From: Erythrobacter cryptus DSM 12079
GTDB taxonomy: Bacteria; Pseudomonadota; Alphaproteobacteria; Sphingomonadales; Sphingomonadaceae
DNA length: 64,000 bases
Reading direction: 5' to 3'
NCBI RefSeq assembly: GCF_000422985.1
Contig: NZ_AUHC01000010.1
Location: 1-64,000, forward strand
Made by a program: the position numbers and the translations under genes. Every line of letters begins with the position of its first letter. Within the stretch, counting starts at the first letter, position 1. The notes beneath the pieces were generated by a model. It did not search any database and was not told the DNA's origin. It was given only the letters and a program-made list of their open reading frames with translations. Shown here piece after piece: positions 7,447-11,010 of the stretch.

Positions 7447-7574
7447 CGCGCCTCTCCCCGGCCATTGCGTGCTGGAAAAGGGGATAGCCGAGGGCGCCAG
7501 CCGGGCGGATTGGCACTTTTGGGGGGATGGGGGGATGGGCCGGCGGGCAAGGCCCGGGCCGGCGCTTCATCCAC

Positions 7575-8813
7575 CTATTCGCACAGGCCCGCGGCGCGCT
7601 CGGCCAGGCCCTTCAAGCCCTTGCACTTGGGCTTGCGCGGGCGCGCCTCGGGCACAGGCTCGTCATCCTCTGCCGCACCAAGGCCGCCCATCCCTGCCAT
7701 CCCGGGCAGCAGCATGGTCGAGGAGCGGAAGCGCACCCGCGCGATCCATTCGGGCTTCCAGGCTTTACGCGCATCGGCCGGGCGCGGCGGATAGGCAAAA
7801 TCGGCCTGCGGGCCATAGGCCTGAAGGTTGACCATCAGCGCCTCGCCCGCGGCCTTGATGACCTCGGCCGGGATGGTGCAATCGCGCTGCTCGGGCGGCA
7901 TCACCGTGCCCGCGGCGATGAGCTTTCTCACCCCGGCGGGCGAGATCCAGTCCCACAGCGGGCCGCCGAAGGCCTGCTGTTTGGACGAGGCCCACCACAC
8001 CATCTCGCTCGGCGCACCGCGGCGCCCGCCGTCCTTGGCGCCGATCGCCCAGGCATAATACCCGGTGGCCTTGTCCAGCCCCTTCCACGCCAGCATGCTC
8101 GCGCCGCTCGCCAGCGGGCTCGCCGTCGCCTCGAGCGGGGGCATGAAATCATCGGCGAGGGTGAAGTTGATCTCGCGCGCATAATTGGCGGCGATCCGGT
8201 GCGCACCCACGAGCGAGGCATTGGCGGGCAGCTGCTTCATGTCCTCGCGATTGGGCCAGGTGGTATAGGTGCGGCTGTTGGCGCTGGTCACCTGCCAGTC
8301 ATCGGGCAGATCGATCGGCGCGACAAACAGCCCGGGCGGCACCTCGCCCGCGGCAAGCCGCGAGAAATCGATCACCACCGGCTGGCCCGCAGGGGCGCGC
8401 GCGCCGCAGCCCCAGAACAGCAGCAGCCGCCCGCTCGGCCGCTCGAAGCGCGGCGGCGCCTCCGGCTCACGCGCCCCGCCCTTGCTGCGCTGCGGCGGGA
8501 GCAGGCGCACCGAGGTGCCCAGCCCCGCGGTGGCGGGCATGAAGTGATCGGCCTGGGGCGGCGGGGCGGTGGTGGGCGCCCCGTGGTGGAGGCTGAGCAT
8601 CCGCACCGCCTGCGGGCGCCCCCCGCGCATCATCCCCAGCACCGCGCCCAAGCCGCCGCCGCTGCCCATGGCGCCAAGCCCGCTCATGGTCGCCGCGTCC
8701 ATGGCATAGCGCACCGGCCCGGCGCTGCCCGCCTGCGACAGCGCGCTTGCCGAAACCAGCGCCGAGGCCGCCGCCAGACCCATCAGCGCCGCGCCAAGAA
8801 TCTTTCTTGCCAT
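7575..8813 (-). CDS. secreted protein of unknown function
   Basis: The ATG at 8813 gives 412 residues beginning with a clear signal peptide (M-A-R-K-I-L-G followed by an Ala/Leu core to about residue 27); the frame stays open upstream to 8999 but that extension has no signal-like features. After a Gly/Met/Ala-rich stretch (residues ~35-60) comes a mixed alpha/beta region with several W/Y-rich segments (M-V-W-W-A-S, L-W-D-W-I-S), then a Pro/Lys/Arg-rich tail. I do not recognise a family. It is probably periplasmic or surface-located. It stands alone, ending 128 bases after the start of the SDR gene. Confidence 0.75.
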   Translation of the reverse strand: MARKILGAALMGLAAASALVSASALSQAGSAGPVRYAMDAATMSGLGAMGSGGGLGAVLGMMRGGRPQAVRMLSLHHGAPTTAPPPQADHFMPATAGLGTSVRLLPPQRSKGGAREPEAPPRFERPSGRLLLFWGCGARAPAGQPVVIDFSRLAAGEVPPGLFVAPIDLPDDWQVTSANSRTYTTWPNREDMKQLPANASLVGAHRIAANYAREINFTLADDFMPPLEATASPLASGASMLAWKGLDKATGYYAWAIGAKDGGRRGAPSEMVWWASSKQQAFGGPLWDWISPAGVRKLIAAGTVMPPEQRDCTIPAEVIKAAGEALMVNLQAYGPQADFAYPPRPADARKAWKPEWIARVRFRSSTMLLPGMAGMGGLGAAEDDEPVPEARPRKPKCKGLKGLAERAAGLCE

Positions 8814-9151
8814 TGCGATTCTCCCCCCAACAACGCGGCAAAGCCATAGCACAGCCACCCCGCAAAGGCGAAAGGGCAGTCGCAAGGGGTTCCCATGACC
8901 GGGTTCGAACCAGTGGTGAGGCCATGGCGCATTATTCGTGTTTCTGATATGCCGCCGACCATTCAACAGCTTAGGATTAGGCAACCGACTTTGCGACATG
9001 TGCTGTGACCGCAGAGGAAATGCCAGCCAGCCTGATCCGTGTTAACGTAGGGATCAATCCACCGCTTTGGAGGCACTGCTCGTTGCCTTTTCGTTCTTTG
9101 CAGGCCAATTAATCGGCATTCCCGCTTCGGCATAGTCCGGTTGTCCGAATC
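8814..9151. other. 338-base gap: left edge of the low-GC insert
   Basis: No gene is supported here. The left part (to about 8930) has host-like GC content and contains, on the minus strand at 8914-8898, a tRNA T-arm look-alike (ACTGG / TTCGAAC / CCGGT) followed by CATGGGAA, but no matching 5' half. From about 8935 the base composition drops and stays low through the methyltransferase and the convergent gene to about 10,925, so the left boundary of the insert is probably near 8935. Confidence 0.5.
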
Positions 9152-10366
9152 ATGGCCACACTCGCTCAACCATCGCTTTTTGATGCGCCCTATATCCATG
9201 ACCTTGCGTCAGAGCTTGAGGCGTTCAGCTTCAACGGAGACAGAACTGTTGTCGAACATCGAAATGGCGTAGCATATTTCTTCAATGAGTTTTGGACCGC
9301 GCGCCAACGTCAGGCGCATTCGATCCACGAGATCAGCTATCGGGCGTGCTTCAAGCCGCAATTGCCCGATTTCTTCATTCAGCGGCTGACCAAGCCCGGT
9401 GACATCATCTACGACCCGTTCATGGGGCGCGGGACAACACCGATCCAGGCAGTCTTGACGGGACGCGTCGGGACGGGAAATGACATCAATCCACTCAGCA
9501 TACTGCTGACGCGTCCGAGAATTAATCCACCATCACTGTCTGCGATCAAGGATCGGCTGGATATGCTCGACCTTCGCTTCGGAAAGGTTCAGCATGAGGA
9601 GCTTGAGGTTTTCTTTCATCCCGAAACACTTGCAGAGATTGAAATGCTTCGCTCCTATTTCTTTAGACGCGAGGCCAGTGGGAAATTCGACCATGTTGAT
9701 GACTGGATACGCATGGTCGCAATCAATAGGTTGACCGGTCACAGCAGCGGATTCTTTTCAGTCTATAGCCTGCCGCCGAATCAAGCCGTCTCAGTTGAGG
9801 GGCAACGCAGGATCAATGAGAAGCGGGGGCAGGTTCCGCCGCGTCGATCGGTGAAGGACATCATCTTTAAGAAATCACGCACCCTGCTCCGTGATCGCGT
9901 TCCCCAGAGTGGCAAAGCGATATTACTAACGGGCGACGCAACAAACTGCGGGCTAGGCGACGCGACAGTTGACCTCGTCGTTACCTCTCCCCCGTTTCTC
10001 GACATTGTGCAGTATGCCGCTGACAATTGGCTTCGCTGCTGGTTTGCTGGCATCGAGGCTGCCGAGGTCGATATCGCCATGCATAAGAAGGTGGAGGACT
10101 GGACCTCGTTCACTCACCGGGTGCTTGCCGACCTCGCCCGTGTCACGCGACGCGGCGGTCACATCGCCTATGAGGTGGGCGAGGTCCGCAACGGCAAGGT
10201 CGAATTAGACAGTCTTGTTCTGGAGGCCGCAGTCGGCCTGCCGCTCGATCCAATTGGCGTCCTCGTTAATGTTCAGGAGTTTACGAAGACGGCAAACTGC
10301 TGGGGCGTGTCCAACAACTCGAAGGGCACTAACACCAACAGGATCGTCATATTCAGTCGTCGATAA
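9152..10366 (+). CDS. DNA (cytosine-N4)-type methyltransferase
   Basis: This 404-residue protein has the two hallmark motifs of amino-methyltransferases: the SAM-binding D88-P-F-M-G-R-G-T95 (FxGxG type) and the catalytic T278-S-P-P281-F. TSPP is typical of N4-cytosine methylation, whereas N6-adenine enzymes usually have DPPY. The motif order (SAM site first, ~180 residues, then catalytic site) suggests target recognition lies between them. Codon use is much more AT-rich than in neighbours (many AAT, ATA, CGA and TTT codons), which points to horizontal acquisition. The stop overlaps the 3' end of a convergent gene by 14 bases; that gene is a good candidate for the matching endonuclease. The recognition sequence cannot be predicted. 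Confidence 0.85.
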   Translation: MATLAQPSLFDAPYIHDLASELEAFSFNGDRTVVEHRNGVAYFFNEFWTARQRQAHSIHEISYRACFKPQLPDFFIQRLTKPGDIIYDPFMGRGTTPIQAVLTGRVGTGNDINPLSILLTRPRINPPSLSAIKDRLDMLDLRFGKVQHEELEVFFHPETLAEIEMLRSYFFRREASGKFDHVDDWIRMVAINRLTGHSSGFFSVYSLPPNQAVSVEGQRRINEKRGQVPPRRSVKDIIFKKSRTLLRDRVPQSGKAILLTGDATNCGLGDATVDLVVTSPPFLDIVQYAADNWLRCWFAGIEAAEVDIAMHKKVEDWTSFTHRVLADLARVTRRGGHIAYEVGEVRNGKVELDSLVLEAAVGLPLDPIGVLVNVQEFTKTANCWGVSNNSKGTNTNRIVIFSRR

Positions 10367-10847
10367 CGACAGACGACAAGAGCGGCACAATGGTCGAGTA
10401 GAACCGGGCGCTGCTGATACGCGTGCCCGCGCCAAGCTGCCCTTTGCGGTAGAGGTCAAATATCAGGTCAGATGGGACCACGAAGACCGGCACCTGCGGA
10501 AACTTCTTAATGTCGGAACAGACATAGCCCTCAATGTTCTCCAGCTTTTGCAAAAAGCCCTGTTCCTCAAAGACGCGCCCACTGCCGACCATGTAACTCG
10601 GGCAGAAGTAAATCCCGGAACTGATGGAACGCGCCTCCCAACGGCCACCTTTATCATCAATCAGGTCAAAGCCCGATCCTTCGGAGGGCGCTAGCTTCCA
10701 CGAGGGAAAAGCGTCACGAATGCGACGCTCAAGTATGAAAGAGATGCGCCGCCCGTCGCGGAAATACACAAGCACCTCGTCCTTCTCTAGGTGCATCGCA
10801 GCCGCGAGTTCGTCCAAGTCCCATTCGAGAATCAGTGAATTTGCCAT
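10353..10847 (-). CDS. candidate type II restriction endonuclease partner
   Basis: The ATG at 10847 gives 164 residues (M-A-N-S-L-I). Residues 12-45 look like a small helical DNA-binding region. A possible PD-(D/E)xK nuclease core follows: D61 in G-F-D-L, then W70-E71-A-R73-S-I after about ten residues. The spacing and the following S-I resemble, from memory, the PvuII active site; the usual lysine would be arginine here. The size (PvuII is 157 residues) and the convergent, 14-base overlap with an N4-cytosine-type methyltransferase fit a restriction-modification pair. Low GC content matches the methyltransferase gene. I did not recognise the family directly, so the call is inference. Confidence 0.55.
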   Translation of the reverse strand: MANSLILEWDLDELAAAMHLEKDEVLVYFRDGRRISFILERRIRDAFPSWKLAPSEGSGFDLIDDKGGRWEARSISSGIYFCPSYMVGSGRVFEEQGFLQKLENIEGYVCSDIKKFPQVPVFVVPSDLIFDLYRKGQLGAGTRISSARFYSTIVPLLSSVVIDD

Positions 10848-10935
10848 ACAAATGCCTTGTCTTTGCGCACTGTAGCGCCCAGCCGACCTGCATCGTATTG
10901 TGAGATGACTAACCACTGCCCCGTAAGAGCGAGAA

Positions 10936-11010
10936 TGGTGCTGCTGGGGAGGATTGAACTCCCGACCTCACCCTTACCAAGGGTGCGCTCTACCACTGAG
11001 CTACAGCAGC
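10936..11010 (-). tRNA. tRNA-Thr(GGT)
   Basis: The minus strand folds as a full cloverleaf: acceptor GCTGCTG pairs with CAGCAGC, a D-arm with A-G-T-G-G-T-A, an anticodon stem CACCC/GGGTG, and a T-arm with TTCAATC. The anticodon is GGT at 10978-10976, reading threonine ACC/ACT. The discriminator A is at 10939 and CCA is encoded at 10938-10936. The low-GC restriction-modification-like insert lies immediately beyond its 3' end, the usual side for integration next to a tRNA. Confidence 0.97.

What the first reader, a model, noticed from the sequence alone, without database searches (positions are those of the whole stretch)
8935..10925. Low-GC restriction-modification-like island beside tRNA-Thr
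An N4-cytosine-type methyltransferase (TSPP motif) and a 164-residue convergent gene overlapping it by 14 bases form a compact low-GC insert directly beyond the 3' end of tRNA-Thr. The small protein carries D61 ... E71-A-R73-S-I in a layout recalling PvuII, with arginine in place of the usual catalytic lysine. The size and pairing fit a type II system, but I do not recognise either protein's specificity, so it may be an undescribed one. This is the best candidate for a new defence system in the window.
Basis: partly seen in the sequence, partly recalled or inferred. Interest (0 to 1): 0.75.

Follow-up and report, generated by a model that had tools for sequence, protein, structure and literature searches.

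The report
RsaI-like restriction-modification pair beside tRNA-Thr
A bacterium carries a horizontally acquired two-gene defence module, a DNA-cutting enzyme and its protecting methyltransferase, that belongs to an already catalogued type II restriction family related to the commercial enzyme RsaI; it is a sound new member but not a new kind of system.

Summary
A 404-aa DNA methyltransferase (9152-10366, +) and a 164-aa convergent gene (10353-10847, -) overlap by 14 bases, have GC of about 55% against 66-70% around them, and lie just beyond the 3' end of tRNA-Thr. The core interpretation is right: this is a type II restriction-modification pair with a PvuII-like nuclease. An AlphaFold2 model (pLDDT 92) has PvuII as best solved match; Asp61 and Glu71 are invariant in 17 homologues, and residue 73 is Arg in the bacterial branch and Lys in the cyanophage branch. 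What fails is 'undescribed': both proteins match existing PADLOC type II models nearly full length (MTase E=1e-178, nuclease E=1e-43), cyanophage homologues are annotated 'R.RsaI endonuclease', and the same pair occurs in two other genomes of the order and in several IMG/VR contigs. RsaI recognises GTAC and M.RsaI makes m4C there, so GT^AC cutting with m4C protection is predicted. New member of a known kind.

The parts
9152..10366 (+). DNA methyltransferase, 404 aa, probable m4C, RsaI-type modification enzyme (motif I DPFMGRGTT, motif IV TSPPF)
   Evidence: PADLOC PDLC03325 MTase_II E=1e-178 over 18-403; Pfam N6_N4_Mtase 55.8 bits against a cut-off of 26.7; 57-60% identity to MTases paired with the same nuclease elsewhere
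10353..10847 (-). Type II restriction endonuclease, 164 aa, PvuII-like PD-(D/E)XK fold, proposed active site D61/E71/R73; RsaI family
   Evidence: PADLOC PDLC03550 REase_II E=1e-43 over 4-154; AlphaFold2 model pLDDT 91.9, best PDB match PvuII; invariant D61 and E71 in 17 homologues
10936..11010 (-). tRNA-Thr(GGT), intact; its 3' end marks the edge of a variable region in the genus
   Evidence: ARAGORN, Rfam RF00005 73.2 bits; partial second copies of its 3' half in congeners

Best explanation
This is an intact, horizontally acquired type IIP restriction-modification system of the RsaI family. The 404-aa methyltransferase most likely puts N4-methylcytosine on the recognition site, predicted GTAC, in host DNA. 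The 164-aa nuclease, a small PvuII-like PD-(D/E)XK enzyme, presumably acts as a dimer and cuts unmethylated GT^AC in incoming phage or plasmid DNA with Asp61, Glu71 and Arg73. Shown: the two genes, their family membership, the conserved pairing, the fold of the model and conservation of the active-site residues. Inferred: expression, activity, m4C chemistry, dimerisation and the GTAC specificity.
For: Family models for both proteins over nearly full length, and all 17 nuclease homologues match the same model. Two genomes of the same order carry the same pair: G699 convergent with a 4-nt overlap (nuclease 70%, MTase 57% identity) next to pstS- and uvrA-like genes, and G690 in tandem. IMG/VR contigs carry nuclease plus the same MTase type (L053, L055-L059). 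Cyanophage homologues are annotated 'R.RsaI endonuclease' and sit beside an MTase gene. M.RsaI is assigned m4C at GTAC (PMC6256690) and RsaI cuts GT^AC to blunt ends (PMC4357717). PvuII fold match E=1.8e-3, probability 0.99. The nuclease was not found in the other congeners searched and the genes are of low GC, consistent with transfer.
Against: The specificity is transferred by name through divergent phage homologues (about 30% identity), and I could not compare with the R.RsaI or M.RsaI sequences themselves. GTAC is scarce in this genome (0.44 of expected) but just as scarce in a congener without the pair (0.31), so this gives no support. Arg at the catalytic Lys position is not among the substitutions (E, Q, N) listed in a review of type II enzymes (PMC4081073). 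TM-scores to PvuII are moderate (0.40-0.45) and VIA-align Z for PvuII is about 7.
Confidence: 0.8

Rival explanations
1. The pair is an active type II R-M system of the same fold family but with a recognition sequence other than GTAC.
For: Identity to any homologue annotated as RsaI is only about 30%; divergent REases of one fold can differ in specificity; the cyanophage nucleases are paired with a different (beta-class) MTase.
Against: The bacterial-type MTases paired with these nucleases are 57-60% identical to the window MTase, which suggests one shared target within that clade; the RsaI naming fits an N4-C type MTase.
Confidence: 0.15
2. The nuclease is catalytically dead because Arg replaces the PD-(D/E)XK lysine; the MTase persists as an orphan.
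For: R73 at the canonical Lys position; Arg is not among the replacements listed in a review.
Against: All 9 bacterial-type homologues in the alignment carry Arg here and keep D61 and E71, which is not expected of independent decay; this residue is known to be replaceable in type II enzymes.
Confidence: 0.04
3. The small protein is not a nuclease (for example an SH3-like barrel), and the family label is a mis-annotation.
For: Weak sequence matches to SH3 domains around residues 52-90 (E 0.2-1.7).
Against: The confident model has the alpha/beta arrangement of PvuII-like nucleases; the gene is repeatedly linked to a DNA MTase in unrelated surroundings.
Confidence: 0.01

Closest known systems
RsaI R-M system (Rhodobacter/Fuscovulum blasticum 28/5; GT^AC, m4C)
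   Same: Alphaproteobacterial type II pair; homologues of the nuclease in cyanophages are annotated R.RsaI; MTase of the N4-C/N6-A superfamily, consistent with m4C
   Different: Direct sequence identity could not be measured here; specificity of the window pair is untested
PADLOC type II models PDLC03550 (REase_II) and PDLC03325 (MTase_II)
   Same: Near full-length matches, E=1e-43 and 1e-178
   Different: The window nuclease is a divergent member (G690 scores higher, E=5e-69)
PvuII restriction endonuclease
   Same: Predicted fold, size (157 against 164 aa; PvuII length from own knowledge) and spacing of the catalytic residues (D-x9-E-x-K/R)
   Different: No detectable sequence similarity; Arg for Lys; predicted target GTAC rather than CAGCTG
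R.PabI/R.HpyAXII (GTAC, half-pipe restriction glycosylases)
   Same: Share the predicted target GTAC
   Different: Different fold and chemistry as published: PabI excises adenine and is blocked by m6A; the window model resembles PD-(D/E)XK enzymes

Membership tests
Type II restriction-modification system | Linked methyltransferase and endonuclease genes | tested here: met
   Convergent genes overlapping by 14 bp; the pair is conserved in G690, G699 and several IMG/VR contigs
Type II restriction-modification system | MTase with AdoMet-binding (motif I) and catalytic (motif IV) motifs intact | tested here: met
   DPFMGRGTT and TSPPF, invariant core across 9 homologues
Type II restriction-modification system | Sequence-specific cleavage blocked by the cognate methylation | not testable with these tools
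   Needs biochemistry or a methylome
PADLOC type II families PDLC03550 / PDLC03325 | Full-length match to the profile | tested here: met
   E=1e-43 over 4-155 of 160; E=1e-178 over 23-423 of 426
PvuII-like PD-(D/E)XK nuclease | PD-(D/E)XK alpha/beta fold | tested here: met
   AlphaFold2 pLDDT 91.9; top Foldseek matches PvuII, NhoI and Eco15I, probability up to 0.99; VIA Z 6.9-8.4
PvuII-like PD-(D/E)XK nuclease | Catalytic Asp, Glu/Asp and Lys | tested here: inconclusive
   D61 and E71 invariant in 17 homologues; position 73 is Arg in the 9 bacterial-type and Lys in the 8 cyanophage-type sequences
RsaI family (GTAC) | Homology to R.RsaI and M.RsaI | tested here: inconclusive
   Only through cyanophage proteins annotated R.RsaI (about 30% identity); the RsaI chromosome CP020470 is not in the collections
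RsaI family (GTAC) | m4C at GTAC in the host genome and cleavage GT^AC | not testable with these tools
   Needs SMRT data or an assay; GTAC counts were uninformative

The most novel reading that the evidence does not exclude
A clade of PvuII-like restriction enzymes that uses a conserved arginine in place of the PD-(D/E)XK catalytic lysine, while cyanophage relatives keep lysine, possibly with a target other than GTAC.
Probability: 0.25. Interest if true: 0.35.

Novelty: new member of a known kind. Interest (0 to 1): 0.2.

Why it matters
It adds well-aligned members to a sparsely sampled restriction family and gives it a predicted fold, PvuII-like, with a consistent Arg/Lys difference at the catalytic position that can be tested. 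It could also make this strain hard to transform with unmethylated plasmids. It does not change the picture of bacterial defence.

Tried and rejected
Two genome-contig scans with the nuclease found no confirmed relative; the degenerate patterns were probably too narrow, since whole-genome family searches did find relatives. GTAC avoidance as evidence of specificity was rejected because congener G409 without the pair shows it more strongly. An attachment-site duplication flanking the island was looked for: no direct repeat of the tRNA 3' end was found at the left edge. A T-arm-like 30-mer at 8892-8921 has no second copy in the genome. A hunt for the RsaI source genome through its plasmid pRsa failed. 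SH3-like hits were judged chance. The PabI half-pipe family, which shares the target GTAC, was considered; the model's matches are PD-(D/E)XK enzymes and PabI did not appear in the lists.

Full report
OBSERVATION. The two genes are as described. The MTase spans 9152-10366 (+, 404 aa) and the small gene 10353-10847 (-, 164 aa), overlapping by 14 bases at their 3' ends. GC is about 55% against 66-70% around them, and GC3 0.64/0.68 against about 0.9. ARAGORN places tRNA-Thr(GGT) at 10936-11010 on the - strand, so its 3' end faces the pair.

FAMILY. In PADLOC-DB the MTase matches PDLC03325 (type II methyltransferase) at E=1e-178 over residues 18-403, and the small protein matches PDLC03550 (type II restriction enzyme) at E=1e-43 over residues 4-154. 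Pfam gives N6_N4_Mtase for the MTase and nothing for the nuclease; NCBIfam gives no match above its cut-offs. tblastn against phage records finds Synechococcus phage Syn19, where the homologue is annotated 'R.RsaI endonuclease' and overlaps a methyltransferase gene. Phage ACG-2014j has the same arrangement. RsaI recognises GTAC; its methyltransferase is assigned m4C there (PMC6256690), and RsaI leaves blunt GT/AC ends (PMC4357717).

CONSERVED PAIRING AND MOBILITY. A search of 398 genomes of the order finds the nuclease in three: this one, G690 and G699. It was found only in this genome among 385 of the class and 398 of the phylum. In G699 nuclease and MTase are convergent with a 4-nt overlap, 70% and 57% identical to the window pair, and lie between pstS-like and uvrA-like genes; in G690 they are in tandem. 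IMG/VR contigs L053 and L055-L059 carry the same nuclease with the same MTase type, in one case with a serine-recombinase-like ORF nearby. L054 carries the nuclease with no MTase found on the fetched stretch. The cyanophage branch pairs the nuclease with a different, beta-class MTase. MTase relatives of about 40% identity also sit on alphaproteobacterial plasmids without a recognisable nuclease of this family beside them. So the two genes mostly travel together but are not tied to one place, as expected of R-M systems.

FOLD AND ACTIVE SITE. AlphaFold2 with 17 sequences gives pLDDT 91.9 and pTM 0.86. The best PDB matches are PvuII (Foldseek E=1.8e-3, probability 0.99), then the PvuII-like enzymes NhoI and Eco15I. 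VIA-align gives Z 8.4 for Eco15I and about 7 for PvuII; homing and Holliday-junction enzymes with a related core score 5.5-8.4. These Z values are middling, so the agreement of the two programs and the active-site pattern carry the argument. D61 and E71 are invariant in all 17; position 73 is Arg in the nine bacterial-type sequences and Lys in the eight cyanophage-type ones, and F81-x-P-S-x-x-V-G-x-G-R91 is a second conserved block. The D-x9-E-x-K/R spacing equals that of PvuII D58/E68/K70 (own knowledge). Lys is known to be replaced by E, Q or N in other type II enzymes (PMC4081073); Arg is not listed there.

SPECIFICITY. GTAC is the best prediction but is not shown. The RsaI source chromosome, CP020470, is not in the collections. 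GTAC is under-represented here (63 observed, 143 expected), but also in a congener without the pair (48 observed, 153 expected), so that test says nothing. There is no GTAC within the pair itself, which is also weak.

ISLAND. In congeners G400 and G409 the tRNA-Thr 3' end is followed after about 170-180 bp by the counterpart of window 7497-7535. This genome therefore has about 3.4 kb extra between 7535 and 10918, holding the R-M pair and an unrelated high-GC ORF. Other congeners have different sequence there, and in several a partial second copy of the tRNA 3' half lies elsewhere in the genome, in some 19-35 kb away on the same contig. This is what a tRNA integration hotspot would leave, but no flanking repeat of the tRNA end was found beside this pair, and the ORFs next to it do not include a recognisable integrase (judged by reading, not by a profile scan of every ORF).

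CONCLUSION. This is an ordinary, probably active type II R-M system, RsaI-like.

Noticed in passing
window 10936-11010; congeners G421 C12, G417 C30, G414 C1, G441 C31, G391 C206: tRNA-Thr(GGT) looks like an integration hotspot in the genus: several congeners have a second 48-56 nt near-identical copy of its 3' half, some 19-35 kb away, as left by islands.
   Followed up: partly
window 8892-8921: A 30-mer that reads on the - strand as a tRNA T-arm plus part of an acceptor stem; no second copy in the genome with up to 3 mismatches, possibly a relic of an earlier integration.
   Followed up: partly
cyanophage loci L018, L030, L060, L067, L070, L073: Marine cyanophages carry a divergent RsaI-like nuclease overlapping or adjoining a beta-class DNA methyltransferase; a phage-borne R-M pair that may act on host or competitor DNA.
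   Followed up: no
window 7575-8999 (-): High-GC ORF with a signal-peptide-like internal start and no convincing Pfam match; lies in the same interval that congeners lack.
   Followed up: partly
L004 (G391:C167:5488-5700): A congener contig ends inside an ORF 56% identical to MTase residues 12-79, so a related MTase may exist in one other member of the genus.
   Followed up: no
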